This document shows positions 29,528-40,752 of a DNA stretch of 64,000 bases, in pieces. Each line of letters opens with the position of its first letter. Position 1 is the first letter of the stretch. The stretch covers positions 2,026,001 to 2,090,000 of the forward strand of contig NC_025260.1 of the NCBI RefSeq assembly GCF_000740895.1. The letters are read 5' to 3'. Made by a program: the position numbers and the translations under genes. Origin of the DNA: Theileria orientalis strain Shintoku (Eukaryota > Apicomplexa > Aconoidasida > Piroplasmida > Theileriidae). The notes beneath the pieces were generated by a model. It ran no database searches. It had not been told where the DNA came from and saw only the letters and a list, made by a program, of their open reading frames with translations.

Positions 29528-30505
29528 TTAGTTGATCAGGTAAACAACCATCAGCCCTAAAATTCCTAGGATTCCGGCTTGCTTGAATGAAGAGGTAAGC
29601 TCCATGGTTTCCTTTGTTCCGTCCTTCTTTGAACATACACAGCTGGCGGAGAATGGCTTGTTCGCCTTTCCAGTGATAACGTGGAACACGTTAGGCTTTG
29701 AGGGGAATTTTTCTGACTCGTTGGTCACGGTTGCCTGTGCAAATAGGGACTCTATCTTCACAACTCCGTCTTCAGTTTTTACTTCACCTGGGCACATCGG
29801 GGGGTCCGAAGTTCCATCACACGCATACAGGAAGGCATCGAATTCTTCATTTAACTTCACGGTACACACGGTTTTGTCTCCCTTGATTTCGCCGAATGGC
29901 TTAACACCAAGATCCAATTTATCGTAGAAGTTACATCCGTCCTTGACTATCTTCTTTTCTTCTTTTCCCTTCAAGTTGATGTCGGTGGCTGGCTTTGAAG
30001 GTTGAATTGAAGCTGACGATATAGGCGTTCTAATAGAGTCTGTGGTCTTTGTACCGGTGTCCAGACTAGCAGCAGGACCCAACGGCTTTCCATCTTTGCC
30101 TTCACCTTGTCCAGATTTGTCGCCAAGATCCGATGCCACATCCTTAGTGTTTCCTTCTGGTCCATGTGTGCTGGTAGTAGTTGTGGTAGTTGTGGTTGAA
30201 GTTCCACTGCTTGCCTCTGAACCAGATGTTTGACCACCGGATGCTGAAACTGCAGGGCCTGCCTCTGATACAGGTGTGACGCCAGTACTTGAGGCTGGAG
30301 TTTTACCGGCTCCATCTCCTTCAGAAACAACTGGAGTATCACCGGTTGCTTGTACAAGTGGAGACGCTCCATTACCCAAATCAGTTTCAGCATTACCGCC
30401 TACCGGCGGAGGAACTTCTTCATCCCCTGTGGCTAGTGAGTAGTACTTGCCATTCTCAACTGCCAAGCATAAAATAATGCCGTACAATATCTTAGTCAAC
30501 TTCAT
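29528..30505 (-). CDS. Secreted GPI-anchored surface protein with a single six-cysteine (s48/45-like) domain
   Basis: A single exon of 325 residues. The N-terminus MKLTKILYGIILCLAVENGK is a signal peptide. Residues about 25-190 are a Gly/Ser/Thr/Pro-rich, mucin-like region with a poly-Thr run (GTSTTTTTTTTSTHGPEG) and no cysteine. The C-terminal domain has exactly six cysteines in the 6-Cys order: GCNFY, TVCTV, YACDG, PMCPG and SCVC. It is followed by a hydrophobic tail QAGILGILGLMVVYLIN typical of a GPI signal. 6-Cys proteins are apicomplexan surface antigens. The schizont GPI protein gp34 of Theileria is an alternative comparison I cannot confirm from memory. Extracellular exposure and O-glycosylation are inferred. 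The Thr/Gly-rich middle would be expected to vary between isolates. Confidence 0.78.
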   Translation of the reverse strand: MKLTKILYGIILCLAVENGKYYSLATGDEEVPPPVGGNAETDLGNGASPLVQATGDTPVVSEGDGAGKTPASSTGVTPVSEAGPAVSASGGQTSGSEASSGTSTTTTTTTTSTHGPEGNTKDVASDLGDKSGQGEGKDGKPLGPAASLDTGTKTTDSIRTPISSASIQPSKPATDINLKGKEEKKIVKDGCNFYDKLDLGVKPFGEIKGDKTVCTVKLNEEFDAFLYACDGTSDPPMCPGEVKTEDGVVKIESLFAQATVTNESEKFPSKPNVFHVITGKANKPFSASCVCSKKDGTKETMELTSSFKQAGILGILGLMVVYLIN

Positions 30506-33548: not shown

Positions 33549-36500
33549 ATGGATTTTGGATCTAAAGAATTCAAAAACGTATCAAACGGTGTAAAAAGAA
33601 GTTTTGATACAATTAATTCTGATTATAAACCAGATGTTAACGCAACTCATCCACCGAAGAAGTTTGGATTCAGTTCAGCTTCTAAATTGAACGAGGCGAG
33701 TAAGCATGAACCAGAAGATCTCTCATATTACAAACATTATAAAGCGGACGAAAGGGTACTAAGTAGCCACTGGCTATTTTCAGATGAGTCGCCAAAGAAG
33801 AATTTGTCTGAAACGTCAAGCATCGCACCACTTAACCAGAATTCAATAGTAACAACGAGAGTGCCCTCAATTGACGTTGTCAAAGGATTTAAACTGGCAT
33901 CCGGAAAACAATTTGATGGAGTAAATCTACAGAAAAAGAACCATTTTAGGAAGTTATTGGGACTAGATGACGAAGATTTTAGCACAAATGAGAGGAACTT
34001 TAAGCTTCCGACAAGCAGATACGACCCGTTTCATCCACCAAAAACGTTCAGATCAGCACAGTCAACGAACGTGTACGAAGATTCGTACATGGACACACAG
34101 TCATTTAGCCAGTCGACAACGGGGGCTCACACACCGAGGAGCCTGTCGTACATAGAAGCGTGGAACAGCGTGTGCAAATTCACAAAGTGTTCCACGTCGA
34201 ACATGTCGCCTGGCCTGCTGTCGATACTGTGGAGGCAGTACGGCAACCCGTTCAAGGTAGAAGGGTCGAACGCAGAGTACTACAAGTACCTGCTCTACAC
34301 GCACGAAAATGACTTCGTGTCACTGGGAGGAGTACGAGAGATAGAGGCCTGTTTCAAAAAATTGTTGCCAAACCTGACCGGGTGAGCGAAAAAGTGATAA
34401 ACAAATGTTTAGAAAAAGTGATTTGTTCGATGAGGAGTGGATTATGGACAAGTACAGGGTTCTGACCCTGAGCTCATGTAGAAGATACAGAAAGAAGGTA
34501 CTGCTTAAATAAGCTAAGAATAGAGTACCATATGACATATACGATACGATTTGATAAAGCCATGCCACGTGTAGGTTGTTAAACTGTACCAAAAGAGTAG
34601 CCTGGAAGATGCAATAGCCAACGTACCACTGCCAAATCCAATCAACGTTCTAAAAATGCTACTAAGATGCGCAAGGAAAGAAATGTCTGGAGAAGCATCG
34701 ATAGTAAAGAAGATATTTCAAGGTAAGACTACATCTAACATCAAGTGATAAAAACTAATCAACATTAGTTAAAGTTTATAAAAACAAGCTAGTAAAAATA
34801 CACCAATCAATAACAACTAATCAGTAACAATTGAATGTGATCAAAATAGACAAATAATAATACAAGTTAACTATAAATCAATAATTAAAACAGGTGAAAA
34901 GAGCCCAGACGTTCCCGTTGTATTAAGAGTACAGGAATACGACCGAACGAATGCATATTTGACAAACGGATATGAGCTTTACACGTGTGTCTTGGCAGAC
35001 AACCAAATTAGAAACATGTTCGACTCAAATAAGATATCTGAAGGATCGAAAATATTAATACAAGGAATAGTTCACAAGGAAAAAAACGGAGAAAATTACA
35101 TAATTTTGAGTTACAATGCAATATCTAGAGCGTCAAACAGACACATAGGCCTTCAGCCTAAGCACACGAATGTGAACATAAGGGGTAAGCACGTAGAGTA
35201 CCAAGTCATGTTTGTACCCACTACTTGCGTAAGATTAGTAAAACAGGCCTATACTGGTCGCAACAGGGTATTAAAACTCTAATACCGTTGGTGTAAGCCT
35301 GCTTTTCCAGCTTAATTCACACCTCTTAATCAGACTAAACTGACCAATATGCACCTTTAGACTTATCGGTAACTGGAGGAAGAGTATCACGAGTGGAAAT
35401 CGTAGTACTGAGGAACTTGCCCATCGTCTACAAGATATGCTACAAGTGCCCAGAAACATCGGAGAGAAGGCACCTGTTGCTATCGGAAAGGGAGTACATG
35501 AACATGACCGATAACATGGATTCGGAGCTGCTAGGTAATAGTTGAGGCTGTTACAGCACTTTAGGGCTAATAGAGCGCGTGTCGACGCAATTCACAATGT
35601 TCGCAGTGGACGCAGCCTTCATGAACGGGAGCGTGGTCGGAGACAGGCTCGAGTGGCTTCTGAGAAGGTCGTGTGTCCACATCGACTTCGTAAACGTAAG
35701 TTCCGCAAACTGGCCTCATAAAGCTGCGACTAACACCAATTACCTCAGGTGGACGACACCGTATCCTACTTCCTCAAGCCACTGACGCGACTTGTGCTGA
35801 CCAACACGGCAATAACGCACCTGGGAAACGACTTCATATACCGCGCAAACTCTGACGCGAAGGCAGTGAAGCTGTCCTGCACTGAGTACACGAAGCTGGA
35901 AATAGTGGAGAACAGCGTTAAGATACCCGCGGAGGTCCTAGCCGGCAACGAGCTCGCTCGAATTCTCTTCAACAAGCTGCCCACGCTGTCACTTCCCGAG
36001 GACTCGAACGACCTGAACGAGTTCAACAGCGTTATCTACGAACGCGACGCCACCGTCCCCTTCCTAGGGCAAATCTGCGACCTGAACGGCGTGATAATAC
36101 ACGTGGGCGAGCTGGAAACATCCCAGAAATACTGCTTCCTGAGGTTCTTCATGCTCACCTCAAGGCTGCACCTGGCGTGCGTAAAGGTGAATTACAAGAA
36201 CCACATCTCCCAGAACGACAGGCTCTCGCTGGTCAGCGAGATCAGATCAGTGGAAAGGAGACTGAAATCGCTGGTGGTCAAGTTCGATTACCAAGGCAAG
36301 GGCCCGGAGGACGAGGAAGCAAACATGTTCCACAGCGTTAACAACGCGCAGTATACGGGTTACGACGGCGAAAACGGAATCTACAACTTCCAGACTGGAT
36401 GCGAACACGTAAGAATCCACGTTTAACAGACGTTTAGATGCTCTTGAGGGAAAGCCGCGTGCTGAGCGACCTGCAAAAGTGTTTCAGCGAAAAAAATCTG

Positions 36501-36644
36501 CTTTTCAAAACGTCGAACCTGTGGCTGTCTGCAGTCGGATACGACCAGCTGGGAGACACACACCTGGAAGATATTTGCAAAATTTTCTTTAAAACAATCA
36601 AAAGCAACTACAACAAAATCTATAAACTGCTGCAGCTGAAGTAG
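33549..36644 (+). CDS. BRCA2: BRCA2 homologue (recombination mediator) with one clear BRC repeat
   Basis: About eight exons. Exon 1 encodes some 278 residues with a BRC repeat at residues 112-136: KGFKLASGKQFDGVNLQKK (FKLASGK fits the FxxAxGK RAD51-binding core). A weaker F-S-S-A-S-K at residues 41-46 may be a decayed second copy. Later exons give the helical domain (EEWIMDKYRVLTLSSCRRYR and NPINVLKMLLRCARKEM). OB-fold 1 follows, with VVLRVQEYDRTNAYLTNGYE and KISEGSKILIQGIVHKEKNG. An OB2-type start GGRVSRVEIVVLRNLPIVYK comes next, then a long C-terminal part (to YKLLQLK). BRCA2 loads RAD51 onto single-stranded DNA in homologous recombination in the nucleus. The family call rests on BRC plus the OB order; total length is about 870 residues, small for BRCA2. 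Confidence 0.8.
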
Positions 36645-36764: not shown

Positions 36765-37190
36765 ATGTTATACACACCATACCTGGCAGTAGCGTTGTGT
36801 GTTGTTTTTGTAGGAGCGAAAGATACGAAACCGAAGCAGAAGGATAGGAGCCAATTAAAAAATTTAGTAACACTAGATCTAATCAACAACATAAGGCACA
36901 TATTCAGTTTAGTAAACAAAGAGGGAGCGGCTGAACTATCGAAGGAAATAATAAGGGAGAATCCGGGAAAGGGAGAACTTTTAGACTATTCATACAAGAA
37001 ACTAAAGAGATCTGCCTTCGTGGGAATAGGATCAAGGTGTATTTGTAAATATCTTACCTGTAACATACCAATTTGTACAGCAGCTTGCCTAGAAAAACAA
37101 GAAAAGGGGAAAGAACCGTTCGATTGCCTAGAGTGCTTCGGAGAGTGTTTACCAGTGTTAATGAGGTGTTTGTCAGGACATGAACACTAA
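36765..37190 (+). CDS. Secreted cysteine-rich protein, tandem family member 1
   Basis: A single exon of 141 residues. MLYTPYLAVALCVVFVGAK is a signal peptide. A Lys-rich helical middle (LKNLVTLDLINNIRHIFSLV) is followed by a dense cysteine module: SRCICKYLTCNIPICTAACL then FDCLECFGECLPVLMRCLSG. The CLECFGECLPVL segment recurs as CLRAFGDCLPLM in member 4 (after splicing) and in altered form in member 2. Here the last two modules are fused without the intron seen in members 2 and 4. Its stop is 1 bp before the ATG of member 2. It probably enters the secretory path and acts outside the parasite; its function is unknown. Confidence 0.75.
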   Translation: MLYTPYLAVALCVVFVGAKDTKPKQKDRSQLKNLVTLDLINNIRHIFSLVNKEGAAELSKEIIRENPGKGELLDYSYKKLKRSAFVGIGSRCICKYLTCNIPICTAACLEKQEKGKEPFDCLECFGECLPVLMRCLSGHEH

Positions 37191-37191
37191 A

Positions 37192-37646
37192 ATGAAGTTC
37201 ATAGCGTTTTTGGCAGTTTTGTTAATAAAAATGGCAGTATCGGAGGAATTAGAGGAGGTGATAGGAGTGTTGGAAGGCAAGTTCGAAAAGCCGGACATAA
37301 GGTCAACAATTGAAAACCTAATGGACGAGTACGAGTTCTCAGACAAGGCAGTGGTGGGAGCGTATAAGCGCTGCAAGGACGAAAAGGTCGAGGACGCAAA
37401 CCTGATGTCGTGTTTCATAGGAGGGCTGTACAGGGAAAAAATACTGGAAAACCACAAAATTATGCTCTGCGCCTCGGAATACTTCTCAGGAACGTACATG
37501 GACTGCTTCCTAACGTGCTTCGAAAACTACACACCAGAGTGTTTGACAGTAAGTTTAAAAAATTAACGCGAATCATTTAGTGTGCGGGAGAACATTTACC
37601 GAATCTGATAGACTGTATGCTAGGACTTCCATACGAGTTCCAATAG
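37192..37646 (+). CDS. Secreted cysteine-rich protein, tandem family member 2
   Basis: Two exons fit: 37192-37548 and 37581-37646 (423 nt, 140 residues), with a 32-nt intron (GTAAGT...TTTAG) in phase 0. The start at 37192 (MKFIAFLAVLLIKMAVSEE) gives a signal peptide and lies 1 bp after the previous stop; an in-frame ATG four codons upstream (37180) would overlap it. The cysteine pattern KRCKDEKVEDANLMSCFIGG, then LCASEYFSGTYMDCFLTCFE, ends after the splice with CAGEHLPNLIDCMLGLPYEF, the equivalent of FGECLPVLMRC in member 1. No transmembrane tail is seen. Function is unknown; secretion is inferred. Confidence 0.75.
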
Positions 37647-37822
37647 AAGAGACAAAGAAGAACAAATTTGTAAAAATAATCTCTTAAATACATACATAGC
37701 GAGTGTAACGTAGCACCATTTATTGAGTGAATATGATGCATCCCTAACAAAATTGTTGGAAGGATCAGAAAATATAAATTTTAAATTCAGAAAAAACACC
37801 AATAAAACTGTAAAATAACAAT

Positions 37823-38254
37823 ATGAATGGAATCATAGTAGTCGTAATCAATATAGCAGTACTGCTGAAACTGAAGCAGGTAGAATCAGTAAACGAAGAG
37901 GGGGGACAGGAACAACCGAAACATTACCTGTCGAAGGAAGAAGTGATGGAAATGCTGCAAGACTCAGTAAGATCGTTGATAGAGGCGGACGGAAGCGACT
38001 CGAACGATGATCAGAAGTTGCTGAGGTACTTCACAATGGTGAAGTCACTGGGATACTGTATGGCAGGAGGAGAAATGAAAAAGCATGAGCTCGTGACGTG
38101 TTTGAACACAGTCATAGGGGAGCTAGGAATAACGCCGCCGGCTCCGTTCATGAAGTGCCTGGGCGAATACATAATGTGCTCCAGCAGAGTGTGTTTCTCA
38201 TCAGTCCTGGAAAAGAAGGCAGACAGCGAAACATCGAAGGTAAGAAAGAAATGA
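37823..38254 (+). CDS. Secreted cysteine-rich protein, tandem family member 3
   Basis: A single exon of 143 residues. The N-terminus MNGIIVVVINIAVLLKLKQV is a weak signal peptide or anchor. An acidic, Asp/Ser-rich linker follows (IEADGSDSNDDQKLLRYFT). The Cys module reads LGYCMAGGEMKKHELVTCLN, then FMKCLGEYIMCSSRVCFSSV. The first C-x12-C loop matches members 2 and 4 (KRCKDEK...LMSCF; VDCMGKT...LRCVN). CLGEYIMC sits where the others have FGECLPVL. The C-terminus is basic (KKADSETSKVRKK). It is the most divergent of the four tandem copies and might use a GTAAGA donor at the very end, near the stop, to add an exon; I saw no convincing partner. Confidence 0.65.
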   Translation: MNGIIVVVINIAVLLKLKQVESVNEEGGQEQPKHYLSKEEVMEMLQDSVRSLIEADGSDSNDDQKLLRYFTMVKSLGYCMAGGEMKKHELVTCLNTVIGELGITPPAPFMKCLGEYIMCSSRVCFSSVLEKKADSETSKVRKK

Positions 38255-38674
38255 GAATATGTTAATGAAATATACAGTTGAGGCAAAATATATAATAACC
38301 GAGTAGCTTATTATAACATCAAATCATAACCCATAATTATGCTTAGTGTATGGTCAAATGCCTTCCCAATGCAGTGTTGTGTATTAGTAGAGGAGGACCA
38401 GTCCCACTAAGATTCAAAGGAGTGTGAAAAGAGGAAATATATGTAAAATACTGTTTAGTGTGTATACCATATCTAAACTGTGTTCTCACAGCCAAATAAG
38501 AACTACATGAAATCAATGTAATAATCAACACAAAAGTATACACATTTAGAATTATAAACCGAATCTTTTACAGAATAGAGCTTGGTTGCCACACCGAAGC
38601 AATTAGCCCTACAAGAGCTACATCAGTAAATATATTTATCAGCATTAAATCAGGTTTTATCGCACATTGGAACA
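38255..38674. other. Intergenic region inside the secreted family cluster
   Basis: About 420 bp between members 3 and 4 without a supported gene. It is moderately AT-rich with no open frame of useful length and no repeat of the coding module. It could hold the remains of another copy, but I find no cysteine codon pattern or signal peptide to show it. Confidence 0.5.
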
Positions 38675-39550
38675 ATGTACAAGTTAAAATTATTATACTG
38701 CGTCGTCCTTCTGTCGACAATCAGAGCATATTGCTACTCGTTTGACGATTATCAAGCGAACACAGCCGCTATCTTACATTTATTGAGCAAGGAAGACTCC
38801 AATAAACACCTCGTGAACACAGTAGTGGACTGTATGGGAAAAACATTCACGTCTAAAGGTAAATCGACAGATTTCTTAAGATGTGTCAACGACTTGATGC
38901 ACACGGACGATTTGACAAACACAGACGATATTAGATACATAATTGGAAATTACGCAGCAAGAGCGTCAAAACTGTTAGTCAAATGCTATATTAAGAAGGA
39001 TGACCTCACATACTGCTTGAGAGTAAGTTGAAACAATAATTTTAAACCTTAGGCGTTCGGAGACTGCCTTCCACTGATGCTCAGAGGCCTGTTCGGCTAC
39101 GACGTGCACAAGAGGAACTGCAGGCGTCTGATTAACCTGCCGAAGTACGACAAGGAGGACGACTACTACAGGGACGAGGAGGAAGAGATGCTCGACGAGT
39201 ACGAATACGACGAGGACTACGACGACGAGTACGGCGACTACGACGACTACGATTATGACGAGTACGAAGAAGAGGATGAGACTGACGAGGACATGGACGG
39301 AATGATTTCGGACAGGAGTAAAGAGGGAAGGGAAGGAGAGTCGGTAGGAGAAGGCTCAAGGAGCCCAGCAGAGAACTCAGAAGCAGAAGCAGCATCTCCA
39401 GTAGATACGTCAGAATTTTCAGCAGCAACATCAGCTGCAGCATCGCCTGCAGAGAAAATGACAACTCAGGGCGAGGGTGACCCGGAAACGAGTCAAGATA
39501 AAGGAAGCGAGTCAGACGATAGCATAGAAGTCATTTCAGACCAAGAGTAG
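38675..39550 (+). CDS. Secreted cysteine-rich protein with an acidic tail, tandem family member 4
   Basis: Two exons fit: 38675-39022 and 39053-39550 (846 nt, 281 residues). The 30-nt intron (GTAAGT...CTTAG) is in phase 0, the same place as in member 2. MYKLKLLYCVVLLSTIRAYC is a signal peptide. The Cys module VDCMGKTFTSKGKSTDFLRC, LLVKCYIKKDDLTYCLR and AFGDCLPLMLRGLFG matches its neighbours. Unlike them it gains a C-terminal extension of about 130 residues. This is first extremely acidic and Tyr-rich (DEYEYDEDYDDEYGDYDDYD, about residues 155-190), then Ser/Glu-rich and ending IEVISDQE. That tail could bind calcium or basic host proteins (inference). It lacks a membrane anchor. Confidence 0.75.
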
Positions 39551-39698: not shown

Positions 39699-40752
39699 TT
39701 ACTTGCTGCGAACCCTCTCGGCCATGAGGTACCCCTCAGAATAGAGGCCCAGAGGATCACCAACACAAAATTGAGCACTGTTGGTCCTAGTAACAGTGTC
39801 CCTAAAAAGTTGAATTAGGTGAAAGGGAGTACATAAACAAACCTGTCGAAAATGTTATTATTGTTCTCCTTATAAAAGCCTATGGTAAAGTAGTCGCAGT
39901 TGAGCCTTTGGCATTCCCCTAGGCAAGAATGTGACAGTAACATGGATGTATGCAATCTGTTGATAACAGAAAAGAGTGTCAATTGATATCAGTCAGTAAT
40001 AGTGTTAGTGTGTGTTAATAAGTGTTAGTGGTAGTTAGGGTTGAGGTATAGTAGTTGAGCCAAGATTGGAGATGGCAATAACAAGATCACATCAAACAAA
40101 ATCAGTAAACAAAAAACTAACTTGCAGCCTCAGAATAGGAGGAAAGAGGTTCCAAATGACCGATAAGTTGACCAGACTTACAAATTCCTAAACACGGGAA
40201 AATATTAAAAGCAACGGGGAGATTAGTGTACCTTTGCGATTAGACTTGATGTTGTACAAATGAATATCATCACCTAATACTAGAGGAATAAACGGCTAAA
40301 ACAAACACATATCAACCTTAATTGAGACCTAAAAAGCAGTATAAACAGCGAAGGAACAAACCAGTCCATTATTTATGGGATAAAGAGCACTTAAGTTGGC
40401 AGAGAAACACAACTTTGAGTTACCATGAGTTTCATTGTACACATCATACTCAGCGACCCTTACATAAACGCAGTTTAAATCAAAAGCACATCTGAATGAG
40501 ATTTTGAGGTGAAAACACTCAAGTAAATAACCTCTTTAAGGCGTCTTCATAGGAGTAGGAATCGACGGATTCCTTTTGGCACTGAGCAGAGCTGAAAAAT
40601 CAAATAAAACTGAAATTCACTTACACATCATTGAGATGTAGAAAATTATTGTTTACAGGGTAGTTATATAGACACTTGACGAGTTTAGCATCATACACAC
40701 TGAATATAAAAGGAATGGAACAAAATAGAATATTAAAATAAAAAATAAACAT
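39699..40752 (-). CDS. Secreted protein with two PAN/apple-like modules
   Basis: Six exons chain in phase on the minus strand, from MFIFYFNILFCSIPFIFSVY (40752), a signal peptide, to the TAA at 39699. The first module reads AQCQKESVDSYSYEDALKR, then CAFDLNCVYVRVAEYDVYNE, then KLCFSANLSALYPINNG. The second reads GICKSGQLIGHLEPLSSYSE, AARECQRLNCDYFTIGFYKE and SAQFCVGDPLGLYSEGYLMA. The spacing Y-S-x-E-A-x-x-x-C-x-x-x-x-C-x-x-(F/Y) twice over resembles PAN/apple domains, which bind protein or carbohydrate and occur in apicomplexan microneme proteins (family knowledge). The modules are about 200 residues in all, with no membrane anchor. The choice of acceptor (CCTAG) for the exon carrying RECQRLNC is what keeps the frame. 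Domain identity is an inference; no catalytic residue applies. Confidence 0.55.

What the first reader, a model, noticed from the sequence alone, without database searches (positions are those of the whole stretch)
36765..39550. Four tandem secreted cysteine-rich paralogues sharing a new-looking FG(E/D)CLP module
Seen in sequence: four adjacent plus-strand genes all have signal-peptide-like starts, no clear membrane anchor, and a shared C-x12/14-C loop (KRCKDEK...MSC, GYCMAGG...VTC, VDCMGKT...LRC). All carry a C-terminal module related to FGECLPVL / FGDCLPLM / AGEHLPNL / LGEYIM. Members 2 and 4 have a phase-0 mini-intron (32 and 30 nt) at the same point before this module; member 1 has it fused. 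This points to local duplication with intron loss or gain. Such families in piroplasms often meet the host. I do not recognise the family.
Basis: partly seen in the sequence, partly recalled or inferred. Interest (0 to 1): 0.8.

Follow-up and report, generated by a model that had tools for sequence, protein, structure and literature searches.

The report
Four Tp2-like secreted proteins in Theileria
A cattle blood parasite carries a row of four small, probably secreted, cysteine-rich proteins that arose from one ancestor, have diverged strongly, and appear to be distant relatives of a known parasite antigen (Tp2) that cattle immune cells attack.

Summary
The window lies on chromosome 1 of Theileria orientalis Shintoku. 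The four genes are real and homologous: a profile of any three finds the fourth (E 6.5e-8 to 1.1e-4; best unrelated of 1445 ORFs 0.03-0.18). Annotated orthologues were seen in T. orientalis records MACK (all four) and MACJ (members 3 and 4). Three protein searches found no other species, but they need shared 5-residue words.

So members 2, 3 and 4 share one intron position; member 1 has none. The loop is C-x12-C, C-x13-C and C-x16-C in members 2-4, absent from member 1.

The closest known protein is Tp2, a T. parva CD8 T-cell antigen (TaD in T. annulata), whose probable T. orientalis counterpart I found 1.93 Mb away (C1:130023-130535). Support is moderate: hhalign 86%, E 5.5e-6; HMM E 4.8e-5 with one profile, 0.01-0.08 with three, above 1 with three. 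Tp2 hallmarks are missing, so they are relatives at most. Function untested; secreted antigen-like proteins most likely.

The parts
36765..37190 (+). Member 1 (m1): single exon, 141 aa, signal-like N-terminus, 9 Cys after it; orthologue MACK_003368 (P0010), 86% identical
37125..37178 (+). m1 C-terminal module CLECFGECLPVLMRCLSG, not split by an intron
37192..37548 (+). Member 2 (m2) exon 1, 119 aa; starts 1 nt after the m1 stop; orthologue MACK_003369 (P0008), 84% identical. The annotated Shintoku model (P0005) starts downstream and drops most of the signal region
37549..37580 (+). m2 intron, 32 nt, phase 0, GTAAGT...TTTAG
   Evidence: agrees with annotated spliced proteins P0005 and P0008
37581..37646 (+). 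m2 exon 2: module CAGEHLPNLIDCMLG, end and stop
37823..38239 (+). Member 3 (m3) exon 1, 139 aa, C-x13-C loop; contains LGEYIM, which is not the module
   Evidence: MACK_003370 (P0007) agrees with this splice
38347..38427 (+). m3 exon 2: module CMVKCLPNAVLCISRGGPVPLRFKGV and stop
38675..39022 (+). Member 4 (m4) exon 1, 116 aa, C-x16-C loop
   Evidence: orthologues P0002 (MACJ), P0003 (MACK)
39023..39052 (+). m4 intron, 30 nt, phase 0, GTAAGT...CTTAG
   Evidence: agrees with annotated proteins P0001-P0003
39053..39550 (+). m4 exon 2: module AFGDCLPLMLRGLFG, then a long acidic, low-complexity tail. The annotated Shintoku protein (P0001, 242 aa) lacks 39 aa of the acidic stretch; MACK_003371 (P0003) keeps a similar stretch

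Best explanation
A tandem array of four small secreted proteins made by local duplication of one ancestral gene and then strong divergence. Shown: homology of the four, gene structures that agree with annotated orthologues, and the shared intron. Inferred with moderate support: the array descends from the same ancestral scaffold as Tp2/TaD, whose probable T. orientalis counterpart sits separately at C1:130023-130535. Inferred: each protein enters the ER by its signal peptide, folds into a mostly helical domain held by disulphides (core framework C-x2-C-x3/4-C-x6-C, with one or two of these Cys replaced in members 2-4), and is released as a soluble protein at the parasite-host interface, where, as for Tp2, it can be seen by host immunity. 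Member 4 adds an acidic, probably disordered tail. The biochemical activity is not known.
For: Leave-one-out profiles recover each member: m1 6.5e-8, m2 1.4e-6, m3 1.1e-4, m4 1.7e-5. hhalign m1-m2 4.4e-4 and m1-m4 2.1e-5. Intron at the same aligned place and phase in m2, m3 and m4. Gap C-x18-C identical in m2 and m3. Hydropathy: N-terminal stretch and no other clear one. Tp2 link: the ORF at C1:130023-130535 (171 aa, 12 Cys) matches published Tp2 peptides at offsets +1, +2 and +2 for 3 of 5 fragments. It is the best non-member hit to the m1+m2+m3 profile (E 4.8e-5, next 0.03), with 0 of 2000 full shuffles, 7 of 2000 Cys-fixed and 0 of 2000 Cys-re-placed shuffles as high. hhalign of the m1-m3 alignment against it: probability 85.7%, E 5.5e-6 (the only hhalign run with it). 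UniRef calls the m1 orthologue 'Surface protein D', the name of Tp2/Ta2 in PMC5017765.
Against: Among the four, hhalign is not significant for m1-m3 (0.02), m2-m4 (0.1), m3-m4 (0.24) and m2-m3 (0.34), and its probabilities are 77% for m1-m4, 33% for m1-m2 and under 3% for the rest (the m3 alignment there held one differently spliced row). The Tp2 link depends on the profile, seven tried: E 4.8e-5 (m1+m2+m3), 0.0099 (without m1), 0.011 (all), 0.081 (m1+m2, behind one unrelated ORF), 3.5 (without m2), 5.6 (without m3), 420 at rank 1050 (m1 alone). Pairwise against the Tp2-like ORF: 16, 78, 144 and 442 of 1000 shuffles as high for m1-m4. The Tp2-like ORF as a query does not find the array (not among the 12 best). 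m1-m4 have 9, 8, 8 and 6 mature Cys, not 12, and lack the NPCxW end. Secretion was judged by hydropathy only. I found no expression, localisation or interaction data for the four. Both AlphaFold2 models are poor (pLDDT 53.5 for m2, 44.4 for m4). No T. parva or T. annulata protein was returned.
Confidence: 0.6

Rival explanations
1. A T. orientalis-specific secreted family with no relation to Tp2; the shared C-x2-C-x3/4-C-x6-C pattern is convergence of Cys-rich secreted proteins.
For: The Tp2 match is lost with three of seven profiles (E 3.5, 5.6 and 420); with Cys kept in place 7 (m1+m2+m3), 16 (all) and 9 (m1+m2) of 2000 shuffles score as high; three protein searches returned only T. orientalis.
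Against: Two methods give a match for the m1-m3 profile (4.8e-5; 5.5e-6); re-placing the Cys at random gives 0 of 2000 as high with each of three profiles; the UniRef name of the m1 orthologue points to Tp2/TaD.
Confidence: 0.27
2. The array is older and also present at the matching locus of T. parva and T. annulata, but has diverged beyond the word-based search used here; so it is an ordinary set of hypothetical proteins. This is compatible with the best explanation.
For: The searches need exact shared 5-residue words; no T. parva Tp2 was returned either (whether the database holds it was not checked).
Against: No direct evidence for it; 1974, 10 and 28 candidates gave only T. orientalis hits, while members of different T. 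orientalis records are still 70-86% identical.
Confidence: 0.4
3. m1 and m2 are not separate genes but one transcript (dicistronic) or one fused gene, since their coding regions are 1 nt apart.
For: m1 stop 37188-37190, m2 ATG 37192; the other three gaps at the locus are 120, 176 and 247 nt.
Against: Separate orthologous proteins are annotated (MACK_003368, MACK_003369), each with its own conserved signal-like start; annotated intergenic regions as short as 1 bp exist in T. orientalis (PMC9323827, table passage); no short (24-45 nt) GTAA/GTGA/GTAT...AG candidate crosses the junction (longer introns were not scanned).
Confidence: 0.12

Closest known systems
Tp2 (TP01_0056) of T. parva / Ta2 = TaD (TA19865) of T. 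annulata, 'surface protein d precursor'; probable T. orientalis counterpart at C1:130023-130535
   Same: Small secreted Cys-rich protein; C-terminal CLxC...C-x6-C framework in m1; single exon in m1 as in Tp2; significant profile match of m1-m3.
   Different: 12 Cys in Tp2 and its T. orientalis counterpart and an NPCxW segment, against 6-9 Cys and no such segment in m1-m4; different locus (130 kb against 2.06 Mb); m2-m4 have an intron; m4 has an acidic tail.
Tandem secreted families of transforming Theileria (Ta9, Tash, NIDP1-4; PMC11237503, passages)
   Same: Tandem arrays of secreted proteins.
   Different: The exported T. annulata proteins without T. orientalis orthologues are described there as highly disordered; the array here is short and Cys-rich except for the m4 tail, and lies in non-transforming T. 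orientalis. No sequence test was made against them.

Membership tests
Tp2/TaD | N-terminal signal peptide, no membrane anchor | tested here: inconclusive
   Hydropathy only: supportive for m1-m3, weaker for m4. Tp2 signal peptide described in PMC1802067. No signal-peptide predictor available.
Tp2/TaD | Twelve cysteines in the mature protein (PMC1802067; PMC8297500) | tested here: not met
   m1 9, m2 8, m3 8, m4 6 after the signal region; the C1:130 kb ORF has 12
Tp2/TaD | C-terminal NPCxW segment (within Tp2 138-147) | tested here: not met
   Absent from m1-m4; present in the C1:130 kb ORF
Tp2/TaD | Sequence match above chance | tested here: inconclusive
   Seven profiles: 4.8e-5, 0.0099, 0.011, 0.081, 3.5, 5.6, 420; hhalign 5.5e-6
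Tp2/TaD | Locus matching TP01_0056 | tested here: not met
   Array at C1:2.06 Mb; the better Tp2 counterpart is at C1:130 kb
Tp2/TaD | Intronless coding region | tested here: not met
   Met by m1 only; m2-m4 have one intron
Tp2/TaD | Recognised by host CD8 T cells | not testable with these tools
   Needs infected or immune cattle material
One homologous family m1-m4 | Each member found by a profile of the other three | tested here: met
   4 of 4

The most novel reading that the evidence does not exclude
T. orientalis, which lacks several of the effector families of transforming Theileria, has diversified a Tp2-type disulphide scaffold into a four-gene secreted array at a second locus, doing a different host-facing job in each copy; the long-puzzling Tp2 would then be one member of a wider, structurally defined family.
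Probability: 0.22. Interest if true: 0.62.

Novelty: new variant of a known kind. Interest (0 to 1): 0.43.

Why it matters
Tp2 is a T. parva vaccine candidate of unknown function; PMC3084734 (passages) says it has no identifiable orthologues outside Theileria. A set of divergent relatives would show which cysteines and segments are the conserved scaffold, and gives four testable secreted candidates in T. orientalis. The work also points to three gene models to correct (m2 start, m3 exon 2, m4 acidic stretch).

Tried and rejected
Pfam: nothing above any cut-off for m1 to m4 (m2-m4 by their first exon or unspliced ORF), for five annotated proteins P0010, P0008, P0007, P0001 and P0003, or for the Tp2-like ORF. 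PDB by a profile of the four: best E 0.14, judged chance and not followed. AlphaFold2 on m2 (P0008) and m4 (P0001): all-helical but pLDDT 53.5 and 44.4, so no fold search was run. Own-genome protein searches with m1, P0008, P0007 and m4 exon 1: no further clear copies; a weak hit to m1 at C1:2188692 (E 0.001, 29% identity, two stops) was looked at only through an ORF list and judged noise; a hit to P0007 at C1:915901 (E 0.29) was not followed. These single-sequence searches also miss the Tp2-like ORF, so the copy number in the genome is open. A query of published Tp2 peptides joined by X found nothing, so I read 200 kb of chromosome 1 instead. I first supposed that m1 is the T. orientalis Tp2 orthologue because of its UniRef name; rejected because a better counterpart sits at C1:130 kb. 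I could not show that this ORF is the XP_009688884.1 that PMC5921998 names Tp2; I assume it. Literature: ten searches (listings only, capped) showed no paper that describes this array; supplementary files could not be read.
Full report
Where it is. The window is C1:2026001-2090000 of a 9.01-Mb, 6-contig genome. Proteins of the locus are annotated from Theileria orientalis strain Shintoku on a contig of 2,746,313 bases, the length of C1. Upstream is a gene with a weak, sub-threshold BRCA2 OB-fold match; downstream come a minus-strand multi-exon gene and then an RNase P Rpr2 gene (E 3.1e-15).

Gene models. m1 is one exon, 36765-37190, 141 aa. m2 is 37192-37548 plus 37581-37646, 140 aa. m3 is 37823-38239 plus 38347-38427, 165 aa. 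m4 is 38675-39022 plus 39053-39550, 281 aa. All three introns are phase 0 with GTAAG donors. MACK_003370 (P0007) has the same splice into CLVKCLPNAVLCISRGGPVPLRFKGL. PMC9323827 (passages) describes T. orientalis gene models made with RNA-seq and manual checks; it does not use the MACK tag in its text, so that it is the source of these models is my inference. Two annotated proteins, P0006 and P0009, use another acceptor that gives an unrelated end. The annotated Shintoku m2 (P0005) starts at an internal Met and loses most of the signal region; the annotated Shintoku m4 (P0001) drops 39 acidic residues, while P0003 keeps a similar stretch.

Are the four related? Yes. Pairwise with shuffles (first 20 residues removed): m1-m2, m1-m3 and m1-m4 0 of 1000 shuffles at or above the real score, m2-m3 5, m3-m4 22, m2-m4 385. 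hhalign E-values: m1-m4 2.1e-5, m1-m2 4.4e-4, m1-m3 0.02, m2-m4 0.1, m3-m4 0.24, m2-m3 0.34, with probabilities of 77%, 33% and under 3% for the other four. The m3 alignment used there held one row with a different exon 2. Profiles of three members find the fourth with E 6.5e-8, 1.4e-6, 1.1e-4 and 1.7e-5 for m1, m2, m3 and m4, while the best unrelated ORF of 1445 scores 0.18, 0.18, 0.16 and 0.03. The background is 264 kb of the same genome in six frames, ORFs of 60 aa or more. The common intron position is separate evidence. The similarity is strongest in the C-terminal half.

Shape of the proteins. The module reads CLECFGECLPVLMRCLSG (m1), CLT^CAGEHLPNLIDCMLG (m2), TSK^CMVKCLPNAVLCISRG (m3) and CLR^AFGDCLPLMLRGLFG (m4), ^ marking the intron: one framework C-x2-C-x3-C-x6-C with one Cys replaced in m2 and m3 and two in m4. 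m2 has C-x12-C-x18-C and m3 C-x13-C-x18-C; m4 has C-x16-C; m1 has no such loop. Mature Cys: 9, 8, 8 and 6. Hydropathy shows an N-terminal stretch (weakest in m4) and no other clear one. AlphaFold2 gives helices at low confidence, so no fold is claimed.

Distribution. Three protein searches (1974, 10 and 28 candidates) returned only T. orientalis proteins: nine with the four-member profile, of which one (P0004) is the window's own m1; P0010 besides P0004 with m1; three already known ones with m4. P0001, P0005 and P0006 are annotated Shintoku forms of m4, m2 and m3; P0003, P0007, P0008 and P0010 are from MACK (m4, m3, m2, m1) and P0002 and P0009 from MACJ (m4, m3). T. parva and T. annulata were not returned, but the search needs shared 5-residue words, so absence there is not shown.

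The Tp2 lead. UniRef names the m1 orthologue 'Surface protein D'; NCBI calls it hypothetical and I do not know how the UniRef name arose. PMC5017765 (table passage) gives 'surface protein d precursor' for TA19865 (Ta2) and TP01_0056 (Tp2). PMC1802067 (passages) describes Tp2 as a 174-aa, signal-peptide, 12-Cys protein from a single ORF, transcribed in sporozoite, schizont and piroplasm, with TaD as its T. annulata homologue. PMC5921998 (passages) lists protein XP_009688884.1 as Tp2 with dN/dS 0.223. To look for it I took chromosome 1 to run parallel to T. parva's: of five prohibitin-domain matches in the genome one is on C1, at 388 kb, where TP01_0188 would be expected; this is one marker, chosen by position, and the stronger match is on C3. 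In C1:30001-230000 there is a 171-aa, 12-Cys ORF at 130023-130535. By summed match to Tp2 peptides it ranked 2 of 1079 ORFs, after one of 1469 aa. Of five peptide fragments three match best at offsets +1, +2 and +2 (120, 25 and 0 of 2000 shuffles as high); two do not match in place. I take it as the Tp2 counterpart, so m1 is not.

Is the array related to Tp2? The profile of m1+m2+m3 puts the Tp2-like ORF first after the members (E 4.8e-5; next 0.03) and aligns it nearly end to end. Six other profiles give 0.0099 (without m1), 0.011 (all), 0.081 (m1+m2, behind one unrelated ORF), 3.5 (without m2), 5.6 (without m3) and 420, rank 1050 (m1 alone). Shuffles of the Tp2-like ORF at or above the real score, out of 2000, for the m1+m2+m3, all and m1+m2 profiles: all residues 0, 2, 0; Cys kept in place 7, 16, 9; Cys re-placed 0, 0, 0. 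hhalign of m1-m3 against it gives probability 85.7%, E 5.5e-6. Pairwise it is weak: 16, 78, 144 and 442 of 1000 for m1-m4. I read this as probable common descent, with a convergent Cys pattern as the live rival. Several Tp2 hallmarks are not met (12 Cys, NPCxW, locus, no intron), so I do not file the four as Tp2.

How it probably works. Made with a signal peptide, oxidised in the ER, released outside the parasite. Tp2 is a target of MHC class I-restricted CD8 T cells in T. parva infection (PMC1802067), and among the stages listed its transcripts are highest in sporozoites and lowest in piroplasms (1427 and 39 TPM; PMC7296165, passage). Nothing of this kind is known to me for m1-m4. In T. orientalis the disease stage is the red-cell piroplasm (PMC9610513, abstract start; passages), so release into or on the red cell is my guess for at least some members.

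What is ordinary. Introns and intergenic regions are short in Theileria in general (PMC2612703, passages on T. parva and T. annulata; short-intron mode 55 bp), so the short introns by themselves are not special, though 30-32 nt is below that mode. Tandem families of secreted proteins are known in these parasites (PMC11237503, passages). The value here is the homology test, the corrected m3, and the possible widening of the Tp2 family.

Noticed in passing
37188-37192: The m1 stop codon and the m2 start codon are 1 nt apart, while each protein has its own signal-like start; possible dicistronic transcript or promoter inside m1.
   Followed up: partly
29531-30505 (minus strand): 325-aa ORF with signal-like start, Thr/Ser-rich middle, a Cys-containing C-terminal part that recalls six-cysteine domains by eye, and a hydrophobic end that could be a GPI signal; no Pfam match.
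   Followed up: partly
39818-39982 (minus strand): Exon-like fragment HSCLGECQRLNCDYFTIGFYKEN that looks by eye like a PAN/apple domain, apparently part of a multi-exon gene just downstream of the array; no Pfam match.
   Followed up: partly
33549-36644: Multi-exon gene upstream of the array; one piece (34959-35279) has a weak match to BRCA2 OB domain 1 (E 0.045, below cut-off).
   Followed up: partly
39182-39330: Acidic, Asp/Glu/Tyr-rich low-complexity stretch in m4 whose presence or length differs between annotated models.
   Followed up: partly
L035:1501-2013: Probable T. orientalis counterpart of the T. parva CD8 antigen Tp2 at C1:130023-130535, 171 aa, 12 Cys.
   Followed up: yes
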